The notes beneath the pieces are model-generated. The model had not been told where the DNA came from. It was given only the letters and a program-made list of their open reading frames with translations, and did no database searches. From Membranipora membranacea (Eukaryota; Bryozoa; Gymnolaemata; Cheilostomatida; Membraniporidae): DNA of 64,000 bases. The stretch lies in NCBI GenBank assembly GCA_914767715.1, contig OU612066.1:27004283-27068282 (forward strand). Reading direction: 5' to 3'. Shown here in pieces: positions 293 to 23,836 of the stretch (the stretch's first letter is position 1; each line of letters starts with the position of its first letter). The translations under genes and the position numbers were made by a program.

Positions 293-3200
293 ATGGTTGG
301 TATGAACATAATGATATACATACAAAATGAGATGCACATCAGAGACCCATCCATGGTACACATACACATAGCCTATGAGAAGCAGAGAGAAATGATGCAA
401 AGGCTCTCTGCAGCTTATAATCTAACCTCTGAAGCTCCTGGTGAAGGAATCGCTGAGAGGATCAGGAAACAGGTTGAGAAATCTGAAGAGGTCAGTCAGA
501 ATGTTATCCTTCCTTTATGTTTGAGATGAATATTAACAGTTTTACTGCAAGTTAATTCGCTTTCATTTACTTCCTTTGTTTTCATTGCTGGTGACCCCTT
601 ATTGTGGTAGGTGTTTGGTGCTGCTTCTGCAACTGTTTTTTATCTAGCCATTGTGTTAACTCTGATTGGTTGGGTGGATTGGATTAAATCAATCAGAAAT
701 TGCCTCTAGCTGCAATTTTCTTCCCTTCGGTTACAAGAATCATAATTTTAGGACCCTATATATTATGTCTACAGCTTTATTCATTGGCATATTACAGAGA
801 TCAGATGTGGTAGTGTTAGACATCTTATTGACTCTAGTAAAGGAGATAAAGATTCCTGATGTTATGAAGGATTCTGCAATGGGTCAATCTCGTAGAGAGA
901 TGTAAAACTGTGTATGATATGATCATAAATCTTCTTGATACGGATTTTGACTCTGGTATCATTGGGAACTGTCGGTGAGTAATGCACGTGCTTGCTGCGT
1001 TATTGTGGTCACAGCACTGTTCTAGGCAGACAAGTTTGACTCTTCAAATTGAAGAATATACACATGAATTCATCTCTAGCACAGTCAGATATGCATTTAG
1101 GTCATGTCACTATTAATTTAAGATGGGCTGTGCCAGCTAGTTGAGCGCCTGAATCAAATTTTGTGGTTTGATGCCATGTCACTTAACTGTCAAACCCTTA
1201 TGACTAAAGTCACTAGTAGAATGCAAAATTACTAACAGTGCATCTTTCATAGTGTGTTTCTTCTAATCTCTGTGCGATATCATTTTCCCAGTAATATGTG
1301 GGCACAGCTAGAAGTGAAGAAGCTGTATGTGGAACATGTGATCATACCAGTAAACCAGGAGAGACAAACTAAACAGAACTTCAACCTCAAATCTCTTATA
1401 ACAGTAAGTACAATGAAAGTCTTATGCTTTAATAACATGACAGGGTTGAACCAGACAAATTTAAATAAACCAACTTCTATGGATAGAGCCGCAAGTAGTG
1501 GCGGGTTCTGCATGTCCTATAAGTCAGCTTGTATAGAAAGTTCAACCAGATATTCATTACTGACATCATACCTGGGTAAATAAGAAGTTGCATTCCCTAG
1601 AGCAGATGATTCCTTCTCCCTTCGATAAATCTCACCAAAAACAGCCTCAACTACAGCAAGTCTGCCGTGCTGTATAATTTGTTGCACTTTTTTAAATGAA
1701 ATCTTGGAAAACAAGCCTTATTCTACATATTTGCAATTTTTCTATAGGAGGTGACAGAGACAGATTTCAGCACACATGAAGCATTTGAACAGATTGTCAA
1801 GTTTCTACGTAAGACAGTGTCTGATGAGCTGAGGGCTCTATATCCGTAAGTTTTTTTTTCTCACAATTCAAGGCTTATTTTTAGGCCAATTGGTGTAGAG
1901 AGAAAGCACTATTCCATTGTCAGCATTTAGAGAATTCTTAATACCGAACCTACTTTGGAATGCTATAAACAAGACCAACTTCATTTCGATCATCTGTTCA
2001 GGAAGGTCATTACCCAAACCTTCTATAGACAGTTTTCTGAGCTCTGATTTAGGCCTCAATTCCGAGTTGTCCTCTCTCCAGTTTGGTACTTTTAACCCAC
2101 GCCGCATAGGAAAAACGTGCTGCAAAGAGGGTTATCTTGTAAACCGCTTATAAGACGATAAAAATTATTTTTGTTTCAGAATCTACAACATTGAAAACTC
2201 ATATAGACATAGTTTGGGAAATAATTTTTGTATTTGGATAGTCAATTATAGCATTTTCTGCCTGTTTTGGGGACAATTTGGCAGAATTTTTCACGAGTTT
2301 CGTCACTAAAATTAAGATTTATCAACATTCAAGCCTCCAATGATTTGGAAACCCTGTCTCACAGGGTTTTCAATGGTGCAGACTCTGAATCTAAAATCAT
2401 TTTTATCCTAACATATGCGGTTTTCAAGATAACCCTCTTTCAGCAGGTTTTTCCTATGCGGCGAGGGTTAAAAGTACCAAACTGGAGAGAGGACAACTCA
2501 GAATTGAGGCAAAAATAAGAGCTCAAAAAACTGTCTATTAATTTACATTCTTTGATAATCTGTTAGTTTCTATTGATTTAGTTTTGTGAATGTGTTTGTA
2601 GGAAATGTCCAAAGAAGTGCTTTTATTGTAATGAGGTGATCGACTCCCCAGTCAGATTGAAGTGTAATCACATCATGTGTTACAACTGCGTGCAGGAGGT
2701 AAAGTTATGTGCACAAGAGAACTGCGGTAAAGAGATCAACGAGGAATCCATAATAGAACTCGCATCTGACAATATCGAGTAAGCTTTCATCATATCCCTA
2801 TCAACCATACCAATCTTGGTGTACGTCTGAATAGTCTAGTAATAAATACACAGCCCAGAGAACTAGAGCCTTTGTAAGCCACCCTTGAGTGAAGTCATTT
2901 AGAGCCAATTTAAGTCAGTTTACATGTGACTAGAACACATTTAGATGAATATGGAAATATACTCCAGCTCAATGAAATTTGTGATTGACTCAGCTGAAAG
3001 CAAAACAGCCATGATCTCAGTTGACCTAGCAAGATCTATCTTGATTAGTATGTTAGGCACTTTGATGAACTGATCTGGGTTAAAGAAAAAAGAAATTAGG
3101 ATTAGTTTAGAGTATTTGGTAATTTCCCAGTACAATTCACAAATCAATATTAGATTGCCATTACTCTATGTTTTAGGAAACAAAAACTAGATTCATTTAA

Positions 3201-6200: not shown

Positions 6201-9200
6201 TCTGTATCCACTCGCTGAGATCATCAACGACCCTCACAATTCTGCTGTAAGTTGTTATTTGACATAATTTATATGCCACTGATTATTTCTTCTGGAGAAC
6301 ATGCCAATATCAATCATGCGCTAGCTTCCACAACCAGCTGGTTGGCCTTATGACAATGCTAACTATTTTAGGTTGTCGGAAGTCTCACTAAATTCCTTTT
6401 TTTATCTTCCTTACACATGGTTGTTACTCAATCTACTGTTTCTGCTGAGTAGAATTTTATCATCCTCTCTAGACTCACCCGGCATAGACTGTTATCAAGT
6501 TTTAAGTTTCTATTCTTCTTTATTGCAGACTCATTTCTTCCCAACAATGCCTGACAATCAGTATGAGCTTATTGGTGCTAGTGGTATTAACGTAGGAAAA
6601 TCATACAGTAAGTACAATGCCTTTTACTGATATTATTTTCAATTTATAGGCTTGTGAACATCGGGTAACTGTAAATTGCTGAACAGACTGAACAGCTGAA
6701 CAGAATTTCTCAGACTACTATTTGTTTGATTCTTAACATGATTGGCTAATTTTGCATAAGCACGGACAATTCTTTATATTCTTCTCATTAAATTATTTAT
6801 TTTAAGTTTGCATTCACCTTGGTTTCTTTCAATTTTATGCACAGCAAATTTTTTGGCATTACACGACTAGTGAATGGATGGAAAATAGCCCCCCCCCCCC
6901 CCCTATAAACAAAGCTTGTTAAGACTGGCTAGATGGAAGGTTGAGCTGGATAATGTTTCTGGTATCCAATTTCCAGAACACCATCAGATTTTGTCATAAT
7001 TGGCACATTGATTGCTTCATTTGCTTGCCCTAAATTGGTTATATTAGGTGCCAACAGGAACTTAGTGACTCATCAAATCATTTGGTTAGGAGGAATGTGT
7101 CTGACAAGTGATAGTCAGCCAGGGAAATGATAACAATAATAATAATTTTAGTCTGAGAAATTCTGTTCAGCTGTTCAGTCCGTTCAGCCTGTTCAGGGGT
7201 TGTATAGCTTTTTGTAAGAGTATATGTAAAGTGCACAGTCTTTTGAAACTGTAGAGATGTGAGGTGAATATTTATCTTTCAGTAGCTCTTGCAACAGGGG
7301 ACAACTGTTAGCTAGATTTGATGACCTGTTTTATCATTATCAATTGAAATCGCCTATCCTAGTTGTCTGATTGTCATCCAAGTTTTCAATTCTGTTCAAG
7401 CGGGCCAACATGGTGTTTATGTGATATATGTTACATAAAGTCGCAAAAGATGGACATCTATCATCATTAATTTCATTTAATTAATTTTTCAGAGTGTCCA
7501 AATGGTCATCCCTACTTCATCGGTGATGTAAGTGTCTACTATATAATGATAATCTTAAACTACTGCTGCCACACAGCGAAATGGGTGCTTACTGAATTCT
7601 GTATAGCTCCCAACTAATAAGGCTGCAATCTCAGTATCGTCACCAAATGAGCAAATAATTTCACCAACGGATAGACAAAATCAGCGTATGATATTAATTA
7701 TCTACCAGTATCATGTGATGTAGTTATTGTCTTACTAGTGGAAATTAATTACTGGCATCAGCTAGTGCTAAATTTCATGCTCTGGTTTTGAAGATAGGTT
7801 TGTGCAAATTATTTGCCTATTAGGTGCAATTCTGAGATTAAAGTCTCATTTAGTTATCTTGGAGCTATACAGAATTCAATGAGCACAAATTTGCCTGAGT
7901 GGCAGCAGTAGTTTAAGGTCCAATGTCTTTAAAACCATAACAAGGCCCTCATTTGTGTAACCTTTCATGATGTTTTTTCTATGGGTGATGCTGATAGCAT
8001 ATGTTTATGGTTGTGTTGTCGCTGGCCCAAGATAATTGACAATGACTTTTTTGCAAGCTGATGCACTGAATCTCAATGACGGACACCATAACTTTGTTTG
8101 TTGTTAGTGTGGAAGGCCTGTACAGCGTACACAATGTCCTATTCCAAACTGTGGCCTATTTATCGGCAGCACAGGACAGTATGGCCAGTCAGCACAGGGG
8201 AATACTCAAGTAGCTACAGGTGACAGGTCAGTATCAAGCTGTCTTCTTTTTTGCTACATGCTTCATTGTTATGTTTACAGTGCGGTAGACCGTGGGTGGA
8301 GGATAACTGTCGCACATGCGGAGCCATTATTGGCGGTAAAGGTCATAAAGAGGCCACAGGAAACCAAGCAATCCAAGCCAATGATAGGTAAAATAATTTG
8401 ATTGTATTATGAATGACTCCCTTACCTAATCAATCGTACCCTATGCTATCTAAACCGGGCCTCAAAAACTCAATCCTCATTTCAATCTCAATCAAGTTTT
8501 CTGAACATTTCATCAGATTCAATGATGTTAGTTACTACCACTTACTACTTAGTTGACTGAGGCGCGTGGATCATTTTCATGAATACAACCAACCTAATTT
8601 ATCCATTTTTGTTCAAATTCGGTACCTGCTATGAAACTCTGTCCTACTAGTTTCGAGCAAATTTAGCTTTTACTAATACTGATTACATGTATAATACAGA
8701 GCGTTATCAAGGTTTTCAGCTACGATTGACACAAAAATGGCAATCTTCAGCTATTCATTACTCATTCAAAACCTTTTTACCTGTAGTGCAATGAAGAGTA
8801 AGCCAGCACACATACTGGGCGCTCACTCCACAAGAGAAGGACCTCTACCTGAAAGAGAACTAAGCTCACTCTCGTGTGCAATACTGAGACTACTCACACA
8901 CCTGGCCATGTATACATCATTCCTTGTCAACAAGCGCGCAGTGAGTAAAACCACTAATGCTGTAATATTGTTTGACTAAGATCCCAGAATGTTGTGTTGT
9001 CGGGAATCATACATCTAGCCTTCTCTTTAGTTTACCTCTCTGAATAAAATAACTTGCTACACTTGAGGTTATGTTATCCTCTGGCGTTTGAGCCGCCGAA
9101 ATGTTACTTAGACAAAAGAATCGGCTGTGGCTACACTCTTGGTATTTCACATCATAAATGAATCATTGCAAAATTACAATCAATTCTGCTTCCCTGAAGG

Positions 9201-12200
9201 TTCATTTGCATTGTTGACAGGTTCTGCAAATGATACAGCCGACTCAGCCAGGAGATAATGTGGTCGGATCGTTTATAGATAAACACATACAGATGGACTT
9301 AAAGCACATCGCTCAGTGCTGCAGTGAGAATGCTGACGATTGTCTTCTACTTGTGCACGATATCATCAACAACATGGCTAAAAGTAAGTAAATATATTAC
9401 AACGCATACAGCTTTGAAGGTGGTTTAGTTTGTCTTTTCATTGCATCCCATCTGTAAGGTTCTGTCATGAAGGTTTTATTAGATGAGCTGTGTTTATATT
9501 TCGACATTATGATGAAAAAAATCTATCCCTCATTTGGGAATTCTTTTTTCTATATATCATCATATTTGCTAACCTCAATAGGTCTATGAATTGCCTTTGA
9601 CTTATCTTAATGGGTATCATTGATATTTCGTTTTGTAGGTGTAGGGAATCGTGGGGCTGACAAAATTCTAGACACCATCAACATCCGTCAACAATGGGAA
9701 AAGAACTTTGATCAGAAATACATCAGGCCTACCCTAGATCAAAAGGTAACTAACCTTAGTAATGCTAATCCATGAATGTCATTTGCAAAACCCTGAACAG
9801 TAATGAGAACATAGATAGTTGTAGTCCTCAGACTCATGTTTTCTCAATAACCTTGTTCCTCTACAACTTCCACAACATCCGGAAGAATATAAGTTGACAT
9901 AACATTTTGAAGAAACACAATGTAATGAATCTCACCTAATTGTTTTACAGGCGGATAATATCGAGAGAATGAGCAAAGTCCTGAGGGTGGCTGACAAGGT
10001 TGATATTAAGAGTATACTTGATACTAAAGAGAATCCGATAAACGCTGATAATATGATGTCATCACCTGGTCTGTGGGAGTACAGCAGACCGCTGACTCTA
10101 CCTAGAGTACAGAACAGGCAGCAGGCCGAGGTAAATATACTGATAGTTTAGTGACTATATTGCGCTGTCTTCTCAGTCTCAGGTGGGTTCTAGGTTAACA
10201 CAACTGATCCCTTATCAGAGGTTTTGGAAATAAAGTCTTGTCAGTGTATCCGATTTTGAAAAACAAAGGTTGGGAGGCAATGTTATGTAGCTAAATTAAT
10301 ATAAATTAGGCACCACTAAAATTTCACAAGAGACCTGAATTTCAAATCAAGAGAATGGTGTTAAACCAAATTGTTCAATCTGTGATTGTATTCATGTCTT
10401 GTTCTGTTAACAGAGAGAGCCGTGTCTAAAGAGGGTAGCAGAGCAGTGTGACAAGTTAGTGACAGTACGGTATCTACCAGATATAATACAGCTGAATAAC
10501 CTGCTCAATGACAGGTTCCACAGTAAATACACTAGGGAGGAGGCTCAACACGTACCTATCTCTGAGTTCTGTAGAATGCATGGAACTGAGCTAACGAACA
10601 TAAGAAAACTAGTGGACAGCTTCATACAAGCCTGGAACATGGCTACCACCTTCAGTATGTAAACCTAACAGAACAGATAATAACAGGGATTCTCTGAATA
10701 AAATAAACGGATGGATTTATAGTTATGTTGGAGTTTGATATGTTGATAGTTAGGCTGCTCTTATTCACTAAGCCTATTGAAATCATGCACTTTCATGAGT
10801 AGCTAGAATAAAGAACAATGTCCAATAGTTGAGACGTAGTACAGCTGTGGTAGAACAGCAATGATGTGTGTACTACACCCTGAATTGCATCTTACAGGTC
10901 GGTAAGTAGTGTGTGTGACACGCTTGGGGTAGAAAAGTTTGTCTTGGGATTATCCAGTTAGTAATTGAACAGAACCACTGATATTTGCATTGTAGCTAAC
11001 CTGAAGTTGATGTCAGATCAGTCACCACTGTTTGATTTCCTGTATGACCAGCATGCCGCCGCTGATGCAGACCTCGGCAGGAAACCTTATCTACTAGCAG
11101 AGTGCCTCGTAACCATACAAAACTCTATGATACCAGAAGAAGATAGGTATGCGTCTTTCATTCGAGAACAAATGCACTAGTCTGTGATGGAATTGAGGTT
11201 GAAATGTATCCAGAAAGAGAAAAAGAACGGCGTTCCAGTTTCAATTAATTTATTCGATGATCACCACTGTTGTCCATGATTTATGAGTTGAGAAAGGCTG
11301 TCAGTAGATTAATTTTCATGTCTTTGATTCTTCTCCAGTGAGAGAGTTTCCCTGTCGGCTGTGAGATCCGCTAACGTAATCAACCTCTCAGGGGAAGATG
11401 AGCTTCTGAACCTCATAACTTCTCACTCTGAATATGAACTGAGTGGTGAGACAAGTAAAGACTATGACTGGCCTTCTATAGAGAGACAAGTCATACTCAG
11501 ATATATCAACAATAAGCCCAGGATTACATTCAATAGAGAAGAGATGGCTCACTATGTGTACCAAGAAGATTTCAACCTGCACAACCAGATTCAGGCTATA
11601 GAAGAGTCTCAGGTTTGTTTAGTTTATCCATTAAGGATGTCACGCTTGGTATTATTTTGAGGAATGCTACATTATGTGCAATTGTGCATGCGTTTGGTCC
11701 TAAAATCTTGAATTATTATTCAGGTAAACTAAATGGATTGGCTGCGCTAAGGTTATTAACAGCTTAGTACTTTGTCAATTTTATAGGAAAGATTGTCTGA
11801 CAGGCAACAGAAAGCAATCACAAGCTCACTTGTGAATGCCCCTATAGCTACCCTGACAGACTATCTGAAAAGCCTGACTGTCACTATCAACTTTCTGTCA
11901 ACTCTGCCACACATAGAGCGTGAGGTGTCACTGTATCAGTATATGAGGACCACCCTGGGGCACTCGCCTACCTACCTGTCAGATGACATGACGCTTAAAC
12001 ATGTCAGAGATGTGTGGCTTGTCATCAAGTATACTCAAGTGGAGCAACTCATCAAACGTCAAGAGGTGGGTGGTCTTTACATTGTAAGGTGATACAGTGG
12101 GTGGTCTTCGTATCTTTTTATTGTTGGCGGAAGAAGTGGGTGGTCTCCTCAAAGTAAGGAAATGAGGTTGGTGGTCTCATCGTCATTAAAAATAGCGATG

Positions 12201-13490
12201 GATGTCATCCTCATGATAACTAGCTTTCCAAAAAAAAACTTCCTTGAAAGTTTAATGCCAATATGATTGTCTGCCAGAACATTAACAAATCAGTTTGAGC
12301 AATGCATTACTAAAGCAAATTATTGCTATCACATTGCTCAAAGTTATTGTCTCTCAATTAGACCATTTTGTTCCCAAATCCCTCATTCAGAATGTATATA
12401 GTTACATCGATGAGTGAGTGATGTTTGAACAAGACCGCTGGGTGAACAATCAGATAGCGATTTTGGCTGTTTTAATTTAAGACTCACTCATCTTACTTCT
12501 TGACTTGTAGGAGGCGTTTGATGACATAGTACCTGAGTGTCGGGAGCCCATTACCAAAGAACTCATCACTAGTCTCGACTCTGCAATTATGTTAAATAGC
12601 CCGAGTACCAAACTTCTACTGCATGAGCTCTTCAAGTATATCATCCTGAGGCTTAACAAGGCAGCTATCAAGCAGGACCCCGAAGAAAAAGCCATCAGGT
12701 AACCAAATTGATTCAACGTTCAATGGAATAAAATCAATATTTTGGAAGAATTTTTTTTTTTCTGGTTGAGACATTTTGTATGAATTGTCTTCCAAACCGA
12801 AATTGCTGCCTCTAGTATAGCGGAATTATCTTTCTTTTCGGTATGGGAGATAACTTCAATAACATGTAGTCAGTCTGTGACCTTGTTTGATTACTCAGTA
12901 TAAGCTGATTTCCATAAAGCCTTGAAAGCTATAAAGTAATGGTCCTGGCCATAATTATTGACTAGATACTTGTCAGTGTCTTATTTACTGGCAACAAAAA
13001 ACCATGTAGATCGTAAATGGGTGGCTTTAGGTCTCGGTAATCATGGAGTGATAGAGAGCATACCATGGGTATGTGTCTTTGTTGTTAGTTATTTCACTCA
13101 AGAGGCTCAATTGATAAGGATAAAATTGTCAGCATTATAAAACAAAATGGAGGAGTAGACATATTTCCTGATAGATACCACGTTGATGAACATATCCCTG
13201 GTCCATCAGTCAAGACCACAAACAAAATCAGAACAATCGATATTATTATACTGTTTGTTACAAGACAAGCCTGTGAAGTTTTTAATATAACTTCTTGGCG
13301 TTTGGTTTTCAGTTTGAGAGATGCTCTGAATGGTTTTATATACGAAAGAGCCAATGAACATGATGAAGACAGAGCTATGGAGATAACTATGGAGCTACCA
13401 AAACTACCAGAAGAGATACAAGTACAGCATGCTGCCAAAACCTGGTCTCATATATGGCAGCGATGTAACTTCTGGTTACAAGATCAGTAA
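293..13490 (+). CDS. RNF213: RNF213-like giant E3 ubiquitin ligase, C-terminal part (5' partial, 27 exons)
   Basis: Exons read by eye: 293-490, 798-974, 1292-1403, 1748-1845, 2602-2778, 3177-3386, 3789-3927, 4182-4313, 4690-4808, 5063-5312, 5690-5824, 5899-5941, 6056-6246, 6529-6607, 7493-7527, 8108-8226 or 8281-8387, 8787-8940, 9221-9383, 9639-9745, 9951-10130, 10414-10654, 10996-11146, 11339-11612, 11787-12065, 12511-12698, 13313-13490 (stop TAA). All have GT-AG borders and agree in phase, except for a one-base slip inside the second exon. About 1,360 residues are encoded. The order is a RING finger, a helical stretch, the TMPD motif, the RZ finger starting CPNGHPYFIGD, and the long C-terminal domain ending in SLRDAL and W-x-I-W-x-R. 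This order matches the C-terminal third of vertebrate RNF213 (about 5,200 residues). The family is a cytosolic AAA+ ubiquitin ligase that coats bacteria and lipid droplets; the AAA+ core would lie upstream of this window. Exons 12 and 13 are the least certain boundaries. Confidence 0.9.
872..882 (+). other. Single-base frameshift inside an RNF213-like exon
   Basis: The exon 798-974 reads openly in the frame set by the upstream exon up to about 872 (ending in IPDVMKD), then continues in the +1 frame as LQWVNLVERCKTVYDM up to the donor. The next exon needs exactly the phase that the +1 frame gives. One surplus T in the TT at about 872-873 would explain it. It may be an assembly error or a real inactivating change. 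Confidence 0.75.
1868..2542. repeat. Fold-back (inverted-repeat) element in an intron
   Basis: An arm at about 2023-2148 is repeated in inverted orientation at about 2429-2538, both ending in a TAGACAGTTTT-like terminus. The interior has no credible gene. The same terminus occurs in the inverted repeat at 18960-19436, which suggests a dispersed non-autonomous DNA transposon family. No target-site duplication could be fixed. Confidence 0.65.
2602..2778 (+). other. RNF213: RING-finger exon of the RNF213-like gene
   Basis: This 177-bp exon encodes CPKKCFYCNEVIDSPVRL, then KCNHIMCYNC, then CAQENCGK. That gives paired Cys, then Cys-x-His-x2-Cys-x2-Cys, then a last Cys pair, the spacing of a C3HC4-type RING. 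The last pair is spaced x4 instead of the usual x2, so the fourth zinc ligand pair is atypical. In RNF213 the RING is not strictly required for ubiquitin transfer, because the RZ finger and E3 module can also act, so relaxed spacing here may be tolerated. Confidence 0.8.
6676..7196. repeat. Inverted-repeat element with CTGAACAG repeats, in an intron
   Basis: The left arm (6678-6717) with repeated GAACAG/CTGAACAG units is matched by the reverse complement at about 7150-7196. A run of 15 C lies inside at 6889-6903. No reading frame of note; MITE-like. Confidence 0.6.
7493..8387 (+). other. RNF213: RZ-type zinc finger exons, with two alternative second-half exons
   Basis: Exon 7493-7527 carries the CPNGHPYFIGD half of the finger (Cys and His ligands). 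Two exons then follow, both starting with CGRP. Exon A (8108-8226) encodes CGRPVQRTQCPIPNCG with a C-x4-C pair and a Gln/Gly-rich tail. Exon B (8281-8387) encodes CGRPWVEDNCRTCGAIIGG with the usual C-x2-C pair. Both start in phase 0 and end in phase 2, and only 54 bp separate them. Joining A to B would shift the frame, so a transcript can use only one. RZ fingers occur in RNF213 and ZNFX1; in RNF213 this finger is needed for ubiquitylation of bacterial lipopolysaccharide. Confidence 0.85.
7559..7912. mobile_element. TTAA-flanked MITE between the two halves of the RZ finger
   Basis: Terminal inverted repeats of about 58 bp, starting ACTACTGCTGCCAC, are directly flanked by TTAA at 7555-7558 and 7913-7916. 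TTAA duplication is the signature of piggyBac-type elements. No coding capacity in 354 bp. It lies in the intron just upstream of the alternative RZ exons. Confidence 0.75.
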
Positions 13491-16361: not shown

Positions 16362-17252
16362 CTATCGGTTCAGCAATACTGACTTGAAACCAGGGAGCAG
16401 CTTGTAGTATATGACAAAGCTGAGGCAACTATTTAGAGCGAGCATTTGTACGCTGACGAACTTTAGCCATCGTGGCGGATATCCAGATACAAAGCCTGTG
16501 CTCCAGATAACCCAAATTCCACCCGGTACGAAACAAATGTAAAAAGCCAAGATGGTCGCGCCAACAGTGCGGAAGGACTTTATAACCTTGGATCTTGTGG
16601 ACTTCAGACTGACTACCGTTTTCATTGTGATCACTCCTGTGATAATTTGAAGCAGGGACAACCCCGACAACAAAATAACACTCATCAATCCTAATATACT
16701 GTTTGCATGATTCACAGGAGCTGTGCAATCTGGAATATCCGGCTCAAATGTCCACATGTCAACCTTTCCGAAATATCTAACAGCGAGCAACACTAAAACC
16801 GGAGTCACATAGCAACCCAGCGCTATGAATACTATTATGAAGCAATGGCATCGTCGGTCCATTATCCAATCTTTGTAGTTCATAGGTAAACGTACTCGAG
16901 CTATTCGATCAAGGCACATAGCGCAGTGAATACAAGTAGTTATTGCGGTTAAGGAGGTTGAAGTAATTCCTAATGCATCACAATGTTGCTTATTTAGCTG
17001 CAGATTTCCATGAGATAACATCACGGCTCCAATGGTGTTGAGTACAAATACGGCAATGTCTGTCCCTGCTAGTCCTATTAGGAACAAGTGTTGAAGTCTC
17101 AGTTGACCACGACGGCATATTTTACAGAACGCCACAACTACAAGAACATTGCTGACGATTATCAATATATTGATCGGAATATATACAGCCAAAAGCTCCT
17201 TTGGTAGAGTTGTATTGATGTTAGGTTGCAAATTCGTTTGGTTGATCTCCAT
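16362..17252 (-). CDS. Rhodopsin-class (class A) G-protein-coupled receptor, intronless
   Basis: A single-exon frame of 296 residues from the ATG at 17252-17250. The frame is open further up to 17387, but the downstream Met is followed by an N-terminal stretch with three N-glycosylation sites (NQT, NTT and a nearby Asn), typical of a GPCR ectodomain. Seven hydrophobic segments follow. Class A marks are the TM2 Asp in LAGTDIAVF, a conserved Cys before TM3 (KQHC), DRIARV in place of DRY at the end of TM3, CFVPGG in TM6 in place of CWxP, and NSCLSFVIYY in TM7 as a variant of NPxxY. The ligand is unknown; short loops and the lineage-specific look fit one of the large orphan receptor families of invertebrates. 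It stands alone on the minus strand. Confidence 0.85.
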   Translation of the reverse strand: MEINQTNLQPNINTTLPKELLAVYIPINILIIVSNVLVVVAFCKICRRGQLRLQHLFLIGLAGTDIAVFVLNTIGAVMLSHGNLQLNKQHCDALGITSTSLTAITTCIHCAMCLDRIARVRLPMNYKDWIMDRRCHCFIIVFIALGCYVTPVLVLLAVRYFGKVDMWTFEPDIPDCTAPVNHANSILGLMSVILLSGLSLLQIITGVITMKTVVSLKSTRSKVIKSFRTVGATILAFYICFVPGGIWVIWSTGFVSGYPPRWLKFVSVQMLALNSCLSFVIYYKLLPGFKSVLLNR

Positions 17253-18135
17253 TGTTGAAATATATATCAGCACACTCGAAAGACTGAACCAACAGAAGTT
17301 AGCATGGTTTGAGTTATGACCGAAGAAATTGAAATGGAGAAAAAGAGGGAAGTAAAATGTTAATAAAAAACAGTGATTGGCTTTCATTTATCAATATCAT
17401 CTGAAGTTCTCTGCATGAGTAAGGCAAGAGAGAAGTTTATTTATACAACCAATCCTAACCGATCCCAACATATGCAGATTGCGGCCATGTAAATGAATCC
17501 AGTGGACGCAGAGAGCTGCACTGTACAAAATTTAGCACAGTACGAGTAGTAGGTATATATATTTCTTGCAAAGTTTCATTACAAATGGAACCTTAGAGTT
17601 ACTAGTTTCTATTGGATAAACTCTAACTCTACCCAGTTGAGTGAAAGGAACAACACATCTGCTGGAACAGACTCACTCCTATAAGAGCCATTTCATCTAA
17701 AATTTGATTTATATATATATATATATATATATGTGATTTTTTGAGTGCCATTGCCCGCTCATTTTCCCATGCTGCGCGTGATGAAAGTTTCTCAATGAAG
17801 AGAGGATAACTCTTGTAGGCCAGTTTCAGTGACGAATATGAAAGCAGGGGGGCTTTCAATAAGATCAAGCATAACTTTTCACAGTTTTTTGGAATCATTA
17901 TGGGATTGTGGAAAAGCAAATAAATTTGAGAGCAACAATAAGCTGATTACACTAACTATAATGTTGTACACTTTTGTATTATTTTGATGATTCCTAAGCA
18001 CTCCTATAATTCCATTCCCGTAACAAAAGTCATAATTCAGTGGTGGTTATAAAAAAATCACAAGGTCTGTTTCAGTCTGAAGCCACAGCCACGGAGTAAG
18101 GTGCCAATTCATTCATAGTTTACTGACAGGTCAGA

Positions 18136-23082: not shown

Positions 23083-23836
23083 TTGGGCAACCAAGGTTTC
23101 GAAGTAATGCATTAATGGGTAGTAAATAATGTGCTGGGCACCATCAGCTTTGTGCATTACGCGATGCAAAAACTCAAAGTAGTTGCTGACTCTAAGTTGG
23201 GTAACACTCCAGTTTAAAGGGCAACCAAGGTTTCGCAGCAATGCATTAATGGGTAGCAAATAATGTGCTGGGCAGCATCAGCTCTGTGCATTACGCGATG
23301 CAAAACTCAAAGTAGTTGCTGACTCTAAGCTGGGTAACACTTCAGTTTAGGGGAGGTTCCAAGACTTTGCTGTAATAATTATAGAGCACAGGCTAAATAA
23401 TAACAGGAACAGGAAACTGCTATGTGGTATTCTCTTTTAGCTGAGTTTGAGTATCTGATGGAAGAAATGTTTCACAAGAATTCTGGCTGAATAATCATCC
23501 GAATTATATTTTGTCTTTTTCCCCATGCAGAAGGTGCAATCTGCTATTAATCAATGGCCATCAATGAGAAGTTGTTTGAAACCTTGGTTGCCCTTTAAGG
23601 GAGGTTCCAAGACATTGCTGTAACGATGATAGAGCACAGGCTAAATAATAAGAGGAACAGCAAACTGCACTGTGGTATTCCATTTCAGCGGAGTTTGACC
23701 ACCTGATGGAAGAAATGTTTCACAAGAATTCTGGCTGAATAATCATCCGAATTAGATTTGGTCTTTTTCCCTATGCAGAAGGTGCAGTCTGCAATCAATC
23801 AATGAGAAGTTGTTTGAAACCCTGGTTGCCCTTTAA
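23083..23836. repeat. Tandemly nested cluster of GGGCAACCAAGG MITEs
   Basis: Two left-end units of about 134 bp (23083-23217 and 23218-23349) are followed by two right-end units of about 240 bp (23350-23599 and 23600-23835). Left units start GGGCAACCAAGGTTTCG and right units end with the inverse, CGAAACCTTGGTTGCCC. The cluster ends in TTAA (23833-23836). A simple copy of the same family is at 20537-20664. Confidence 0.75.

What the first reader, a model, noticed from the sequence alone, without database searches (positions are those of the whole stretch)
8108..8387. Mutually exclusive exons swap half of the RZ zinc finger of an RNF213-like E3 ligase
Two adjacent exons both begin CGRP at phase 0, both end at phase 2, and differ in the rest. 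One has the usual C-x2-C ligand pair. The other has C-x4-C and a longer Gly/Gln-rich tail. Including both would break the frame, and the 54-bp intron between them is probably too short to splice. That is the classic architecture of mutually exclusive splicing. In RNF213 the RZ finger is needed to ubiquitylate lipopolysaccharide, so a splice switch could change the target or activity. I know of no report of alternative RZ fingers, though that is from memory.
Basis: partly seen in the sequence, partly recalled or inferred. Interest (0 to 1): 0.9.

Follow-up and report, generated by a model that had tools for sequence, protein, structure and literature searches.

The report
Alternative catalytic exons in bryozoan RNF213
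A sea-mat gene for an immune-type ubiquitin ligase carries two side-by-side versions of the exon that holds its active site, only one of which can be used at a time without breaking the protein, and one version lacks a histidine thought to help catalysis; whether the animal really uses both has not been shown.

Summary
The window very probably comes from chromosome 2 of the bryozoan Membranipora membranacea. It holds the 3' part of an RNF213-type gene whose RZ finger is split by a phase-0 intron. Two exons (A 8108-8226, B 8281-8387) each complete a Pfam RZ finger; only A alone or B alone keeps the frame. The gap between them is 54 nt; 60 other introns estimated in six RNF213-type genes here are 138-2585 nt. 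The swapped segment holds the catalytic Cys, two of four zinc ligands and the general-base position. B matches mouse RNF213 at all six positions. A keeps the Cys and ligands (as C-x4-C, seen in 0 of 48 homologues) but has Gln for the base His and contains no His. Exon A was found in 4 of 13 RZ loci. In the one diverged copy, exon A stays open with mild signs of purifying selection, but a ~2-kb element breaks its splice donor. No RNA data could be read, so mutually exclusive use is an inference (about 0.6). Published polyA RNA-seq (ERR6464929) could settle it.

The parts
2582..2779 (+). Open stretch with a RING-like motif of the same gene (approximate borders)
   Evidence: Frame open; weak C3HC4 RING matches below the Pfam cut-offs
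6529..6607 (+). Exon just before the RZ finger, THFFPTMPDNQYELIGASGINVGKSY
   Evidence: GT/AG borders; aligned to RNF213 structures and Bugula neritina
7493..7527 (+). First half of the RZ finger, (K)CPNGHPYFIGD: zinc ligands Cys and His; ends at phase 0
   Evidence: identical in the diverged fourth copy
8108..8226 (+). Exon A: alternative second half of the RZ finger, C-x4-C, Gln at the general-base position, no His; phase 0 in, phase 2 out
8227..8280 (+). 54-nt gap with the exon-A donor (GTCAGT) and exon-B acceptor; best branch-point-like A at position 39
   Evidence: 2 of 54 differences to the fourth copy against 90 of 394 in the next intron
8281..8387 (+). Exon B: canonical second half of the RZ finger, C-x2-C and GGxxH; phase 0 in, phase 2 out
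8149..8163 (+). Exon-A arm, 14 of 15 complementary to 8345-8359 in exon B (weak lead)
   Evidence: 0 of 300 shuffles reach it, 12 of 15 in the fourth copy; used in the predicted fold, but the whole fold is not unusually stable
8345..8359 (+). Exon-B arm of that complementarity
8787..8940 (+). Common downstream exon, (S)AMKSKPAHILGAHS...VNKRA, entered at phase 2
9221..13490 (+). Remaining 3' exons of the RNF213-type gene (borders approximate)
   Evidence: collinear tblastn matches of the Bugula neritina protein; in-frame TAA at 13488-13490

Best explanation
[quoted passage not shown] Shown from sequence: each exon alone, but not both or neither, keeps the frame; both complete an RZ finger; the gap between them is 54 nt, with the best branch-point-like A 39 nt from the donor. 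Inferred: A-to-B joining is blocked by this short distance, and any such product would be removed because of its early stops, so each working mRNA has A or B. The B isoform has the full set known from mouse RNF213: four zinc ligands, the nucleophile Cys and the general-base His. The A isoform keeps the Cys and a possible four-ligand zinc site (wider C-x4-C knuckle) but lacks the His, so it should accept ubiquitin from the E2 yet pass it on slowly or to other substrates. Splicing would then set how active, or how selective, the ligase is. The protein-level part is inference from published mouse and human mutants.
For: Frames and splice sites. RZ matches for both isoforms. RNF213 homology of the RZ region and of upstream AAA exons. 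60 introns estimated in six RNF213-type genes are 138-2585 nt. In the diverged fourth copy exon A has 11 substitutions but 4 amino-acid changes and no stop (dN 0.064, dS 0.231; neutral simulation P 0.024, 0.019 jointly with no stop). The 54-nt gap has 2 of 54 differences against 90 of 394 in the next intron. PMC12075652 passages: mouse C4462 nucleophile, H4483 general base (H to A lowers activity), zinc ligands C4451, H4455, C4471, C4474; this spacing fits B at all six positions, and A except for the wider knuckle and the base. Similar length, frame and similarity were shared by only 0.56% (90 of 16,180) of exons not annotated as mutually exclusive on the Drosophila X (PMC3228551 passages).
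Against: No RNA evidence. The fourth copy has lost the normal exon-A donor to a ~2-kb insertion, so A is dispensable at least there. The three other copies are nearly identical and apparently homogenised around the RZ exons, so they count as little more than one. No exon A was detected in nine other RZ loci or in the Bugula neritina protein. Exon A scores lower against the RZ profile. The gap's conservation could also come from gene conversion. Four amino-acid changes in 39 is more than in exon B (1 of 35). The selection test rests on 11 substitutions; the same test on exon B, with 4, gives P 0.066. In human mutually exclusive clusters of the frame-shift type, reads joining both exons were still found for 83 of 377 (PMC5740500 passage).
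Confidence: 0.6

Rival explanations
1. Exon A is a relic of an old exon duplication that is no longer used, or used only as splicing noise; exon B is the constitutive exon.
For: The fourth copy carries an insertion at the exon-A donor. A lacks the conserved His and has changed ligand spacing. No exon A was detected in nine other RZ loci or in the Bugula neritina protein. The exon-A donor GTCAGT departs at +3 from the GTAAGT seen at several other donors of the gene.
Against: Exon A is open in all four copies, with conserved acceptor and, in three of four, a normal donor. It keeps the Cys, CG[RK]P, both ligands and the phases, and shows fewer amino-acid changes than neutral simulation (P 0.024). 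At 0.26-0.49 identity to the ten B-type exons compared it looks old, and a long-dead exon would be expected to have gathered stops.
Confidence: 0.27
2. Exon A acts as an off switch: its inclusion, alone or with B, mainly makes a dead or degraded product that lowers the amount of active ligase (poison-exon-like control).
For: Joining A to B gives a stop within about 40 codons, and A lacks the general base.
Against: A alone leaves the frame open through the next exons, and the 54-nt gap makes A+B joining unlikely. A true poison exon need not keep zinc ligands and frame.
Confidence: 0.1
3. The pair is an assembly or haplotype artefact.
For: Three copies are nearly identical in this region.
Against: The copies differ by about 2% just outside this region and by insertions; the fourth, diverged copy has the same A-gap-B order around its insertion; if the species match is right, the assembly used 66-fold HiFi reads (PMC10290214, part 1 of 3 of the text seen).
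Confidence: 0.03

Closest known systems
RNF213 RZ-finger E3 ligase (mouse, human)
   Same: Same order of AAA region, RING-like stretch, RZ finger and C-terminal part; B matches the mouse RZ at zinc ligands, nucleophile Cys and general-base His by spacing.
   Different: The gene here offers a second catalytic half (exon A) with C-x4-C and no His. Searches for RNF213 with RZ finger and alternative splicing (1 paper) and with splice isoform (8 papers), seen as listings, showed no title or abstract on an alternative RZ finger.
Mutually exclusive exon clusters from exon duplication (PMC3228551, PMC5740500)
   Same: Neighbouring internal exons of similar length, same phases, compatible splice sites and similar sequence; short donor-to-branch-point distance; frame shift if both are included.
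   Different: Exclusive use is not shown by reads. The swapped piece is an enzyme's catalytic site.
Bugula neritina protein EB796_009578 (P0050)
   Same: 51% identical over the RZ region and collinear with the window's 3' exons.
   Different: Has only a B-type second half (C-x2-C, GGxxH) in the one predicted protein seen.

Membership tests
RNF213-type E3 ligase | RZ-type zinc finger (PF20173) | tested here: met
   A 55.9 bits, B 70 bits, cut-off 27
RNF213-type E3 ligase | Dynein-like AAA region upstream in the same order | tested here: met
   Joined upstream open stretches match human RNF213 2768-2964, E 9e-67; Pfam AAA matches of these stretches stay under the cut-offs; full gene model not built
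RNF213-type E3 ligase | RING domain between the AAA region and the RZ finger | tested here: inconclusive
   Cys/His-rich stretch at 2582-2779 in the right place; best RING match 17.8 bits, under the cut-off of 21
RZ catalytic site | Nucleophile Cys, four zinc ligands and general-base His at mouse spacing, in exon B | tested here: met
   All six at the spacing of mouse C4451, H4455, C4462, C4471, C4474, H4483
RZ catalytic site | Same six positions in exon A | tested here: not met
   Cys and ligands present, knuckle C-x4-C, Gln at the base position and no His in the exon
Mutually exclusive exons | Similar length, same phases, compatible splice sites, sequence similarity | tested here: met
   119 and 107 nt, both phase 0 to 2, GT-AG, 37.5-40% identical
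Mutually exclusive exons | Exclusion mechanism: donor-to-branch-point distance too short, or frame shift on joint inclusion | tested here: met
   54-nt gap, branch-point-like A at 39; A+B frame shift. Smallest of 60 other introns 138 nt, in RNF213-type genes only
Mutually exclusive exons | Every transcript contains exactly one of the two exons | not testable with these tools
   No RNA reads available; the assembly paper lists polyA RNA-seq ERR6464929

The most novel reading that the evidence does not exclude
Alternative splicing switches a transthiolating E3 ligase between a full Cys/His active site and a version that keeps the ubiquitin-accepting Cys and zinc site but has no general base. It thereby makes a slow, ubiquitin-holding or differently selective isoform of an RNF213-type immune ligase: a splice-set active-site chemistry, found here in one gene cluster of a bryozoan.
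Probability: 0.35. Interest if true: 0.8.

Novelty: new variant of a known kind. Interest (0 to 1): 0.6.

Why it matters
RNF213 marks bacteria and other invaders with ubiquitin through its RZ finger, including on non-protein targets. How the RZ active site picks its substrates is, as far as I know, open. A natural pair of interchangeable catalytic halves, differing in the general base and the zinc knuckle, would be a ready-made experiment on what each residue does. It would also be a case of splicing that exchanges an enzyme's active site rather than a regulatory part.

Tried and rejected
Reading the four copies as independent support for exon A: rejected, because three of them are nearly identical and look homogenised around the RZ exons.

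Looking for a second exon in other RZ genes of the genome: 13 second-half exons pass the Pfam cut-off (32 matches listed at E up to 10, 33 of 33 candidates scored; the tool calls its counts lower bounds). With a sequence pattern I scanned 11 of these 13 loci, about 1.5 kb to each side. The two left out (L035, L036) are the copies shown identical. None of the nine loci outside the cluster showed a further second-half exon. L030's first RZ exon lies beyond its flank, so that gap was covered only by the protein searches. A strongly changed exon could be missed.

Looking for an A-type finger elsewhere: three protein searches gave 50 distinct proteins (6 of 57 candidates; 45 of 88, two of them shared; 1 of 102). 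48 of the 50 could be parsed: 44 have C-x2-C, 4 C-x-C, none C-x4-C; 45 have His at the base position, 3 do not (E, Y, S). P0026 and P0041 were dropped by the pattern; by eye P0041 has Ser for the last ligand and keeps the His. These searches reach few bryozoans.

An RNA-structure switch: exon A 8149-8163 and exon B 8345-8359 are complementary at 14 of 15 positions (0 of 300 shuffles), but only 12 of 15 in the fourth copy, and the fold of the region is no more stable than shuffles (z 0.23). Noticed after the fact; kept as a weak lead.

Intron lengths: a genome-wide survey through myosin heads (PF00063) did not complete, so the comparison rests on RNF213-type genes only. One search gave 60 values; one of 4 nt (a frame shift in L014) was dropped, and neighbouring matches 15 or more residues apart were left out. 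On checking, a 138-nt intron of the fourth copy was found hidden inside one match and added, which makes 60. Two of the 60 values (753 in the window, 2489 in the fourth copy) run from the first RZ exon across exon A to exon B. Lengths are estimates from match borders.

A draft of the local gene model with a wrong frame was corrected. In one search the stretch upstream of A aligned badly, probably because of the ~364-nt element at 7554-7917; exon positions in the fourth copy come, whose last part failed.

Full report
WHAT IS THERE. The window carries the 3' part of a gene on the plus strand. Its RZ region aligns to RNF213 structures (best 6tay, E 3.9e-17), and joined upstream stretches in the same order align to human RNF213 2768-2964 (E 9e-67). 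The RZ finger is split: exon 7493-7527 gives (K)CPNGHPYFIGD and ends at phase 0. Two exons follow, A (8108-8226) and B (8281-8387), each beginning CGRP at phase 0 and ending at phase 2 into 8787-8940. Both spliced proteins match PF20173, A with 55.9 and B with 70 bits against a cut-off of 27.

FRAME AND DISTANCE. Only A alone or B alone gives an open frame; A+B, neither, and A with the gap retained meet stops. The gap is 54 nt; the better of two branch-point-like sites is 39 nt from its donor. Human work used a donor-to-branch-point distance under 50 bp as the mark of steric interference (57 clusters, 9%) and counted frame shift on joint inclusion as a further safeguard (377 clusters, 60%), though joining reads still turned up in 83 of those 377 (PMC5740500, passages). 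In six RNF213-type genes of this genome, 60 introns estimated from protein matches run from 138 to 2585 nt (one value of 4 nt, a frame shift, dropped). A genome-wide survey could not be run, because the requests with PF00063 did not complete.

THE ORGANISM. The genome is given unnamed, with 339,339,785 bases in 18 contigs. C2 is 39,529,243 long, and C18 is a 14,741-base mitochondrial contig with 34% GC. Membranipora membranacea tzMemMemb1.1 has 339,374,674 bp in 21 scaffolds, chromosome 2 of 39.53 Mb, and a 14.7-kb mitochondrion with 34% GC (PMC10290214, part 1 of 3 of the text seen). The small difference in size and scaffold number would fit a few unplaced scaffolds that are not held. The best relative found, in Bugula neritina (51%), is also a bryozoan. 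I take the match as very likely, not proven.

COPIES. Exon A occurs in four places at E up to 1 (4 of 4 candidates), all in one 0.6-Mb stretch of C2. Three copies, the window's included, are nearly identical here: 0 differences in both exons and the gap, 1-2 in each neighbouring intron. They differ from the window by 0.4% and 0.2% between about 6.8 and 9.2 kb but by about 2% from 5.2 to 6.8 kb, so they look homogenised and are not independent. The fourth copy lies on the other strand and is diverged (the intron after B differs at 90 of 394 sites). It keeps the first RZ exon unchanged, exon A at 35 of 39 residues and exon B at 34 of 35. In it a ~2-kb element with inverted ends sits at the end of exon A, between two copies of an ~11-base direct repeat, so that the exon-A donor reads GCATAT instead of GTCAGT. 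Exon A in that copy is therefore probably out of use.

SELECTION. Between the window and the fourth copy, exon A has dN 0.064 and dS 0.231, exon B 0.012 and 0.147, the next exon 0.027 and 0.412. With 11 random substitutions, 4 or fewer amino-acid changes in exon A arise in 2.4% of simulations, and in 1.9% with no stop as well; for exon B, with 4 substitutions, the figures are 6.6% and 6.3%; for the next exon 0.02%. This is modest support for constraint on A, from few changes, and part of that branch may postdate the insertion. The 54-nt gap has 2 of 54 differences while the next intron has 90 of 394 (Fisher P 0.0005; 0.004 against the pooled synonymous rate of seven exons). That fits constraint on a regulated gap, but gene conversion could also explain it.

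ACTIVE SITE. In mouse RNF213 the nucleophile is C4462 and the zinc ligands are C4451, H4455, C4471 and C4474. Loss of any ligand ablates autoubiquitination. H4483, next to C4462 in a structural model, is proposed as general base, and its change to Ala lowers activity (PMC12075652, passages). In human RNF213 the same roles are given to C4516 and H4537, and the RZ mutants H4509A and C4516S are defective in ubiquitylation of, and coat formation on, Salmonella and Listeria (PMC11549300, passages). Counting spacings, the first exon here carries the first two ligands. The swapped exon carries the nucleophile (the C of CGRP), the other two ligands and the base. B fits at every position. A has the nucleophile at the right place, a C-x4-C knuckle, Gln nine residues after the last ligand, and no His anywhere in the exon. 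The fourth copy's exon A has two His, but at other positions.

HOW UNUSUAL. Among 50 homologues found, 48 were parsed: none has C-x4-C, and 45 have the His. In this genome 13 second-half exons pass the RZ cut-off, a lower bound. The 11 loci read all have the His in their B-type exon, with C-x2-C or, once, C-x-C; the two not read there are identical copies of the window's. A second exon was detected only in the cluster of four. Exon A is 0.26-0.49 identical to the ten B-type exons compared and 0.40 to its neighbour B, so the duplication is old or A has evolved fast.

MECHANISM, GRADED. Shown: exon structure, frame logic, RZ match of both forms, residue differences, recurrence in four loci. Inferred with fair confidence: mutually exclusive use, enforced by distance and frame. 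Inferred with less confidence: A makes a ligase that loads ubiquitin but discharges it poorly or differently. Not shown: transcription of A, choice between A and B, biological trigger. The A-B base-pairing (14 of 15) is a weak lead, because it is weaker in the fourth copy and the whole fold is ordinary. RNF213 is named among genes up-regulated in autozooid tissue of another bryozoan, Bugulina stolonifera (PMC7534450, one passage), which shows expression of such genes but says nothing on exons.

KNOWN OR NEW. Mutually exclusive exons from tandem duplication are a known kind, and RNF213 RZ fingers are known. No title or abstract on alternative RZ fingers appeared in searches for RNF213 with RZ finger and alternative splicing (1 paper), RZ finger (13), RNF213 with splice isoform (8), mutually exclusive exons with ubiquitin ligase, zinc finger and splicing (47 papers, 15 listed), and bryozoa with RNF213 (2). 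These were seen as listings, apart from passages of PMC11549300 and PMC7534450. The library lacks most subscription papers. I file it as a new variant of a known kind.

Noticed in passing
window 7554-7917: A ~364-nt element with 64-nt inverted ends (84% complementary) sits in the intron between the first RZ exon and exon A; a relative (81%) lies at L009:632-1013, and the fourth gene copy seems to lack it.
   Followed up: partly
L011/L012 (G000:C2 about 26,406,900-26,408,920, minus strand): A ~2-kb element with inverted ends is inserted at the 3' end of exon A in the fourth RNF213 copy, flanked by an ~11-base direct repeat.
   Followed up: partly
window 6800-9200 against L017 and L018: The near-identical copies differ by only 0.4% and 0.2% around the RZ exons, introns included, but by about 2% from 5.2 to 6.8 kb, as if this part had been homogenised by gene conversion.
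   Followed up: partly
G000:C2 26.41, 26.59, 26.79 and 27.01 Mb: The four RNF213-type copies are spaced about 200 kb apart in one cluster; at least 13 RZ second-half exons exist in the genome, 11 of them on C2.
   Followed up: partly
L014:6081-6252: The RNF213-type copy at 36.40 Mb shows a frame shift inside an exon that is continuous in its near relative L013, so it may be decaying.
   Followed up: no
L010:5311-5559: A second Cys/His-rich, RING-like stretch lies upstream of the window, between the AAA-like stretches and the RING-like stretch at 2582; no Pfam match at E up to 0.1.
   Followed up: partly
window 16365-17387, minus strand: A 341-codon open frame matches the rhodopsin-type seven-transmembrane receptors (PF00001, 43.8 bits).
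   Followed up: partly
window 23085-23804: Two adjoining two-copy tandem duplications with units of 134 and 248 nt.
   Followed up: no
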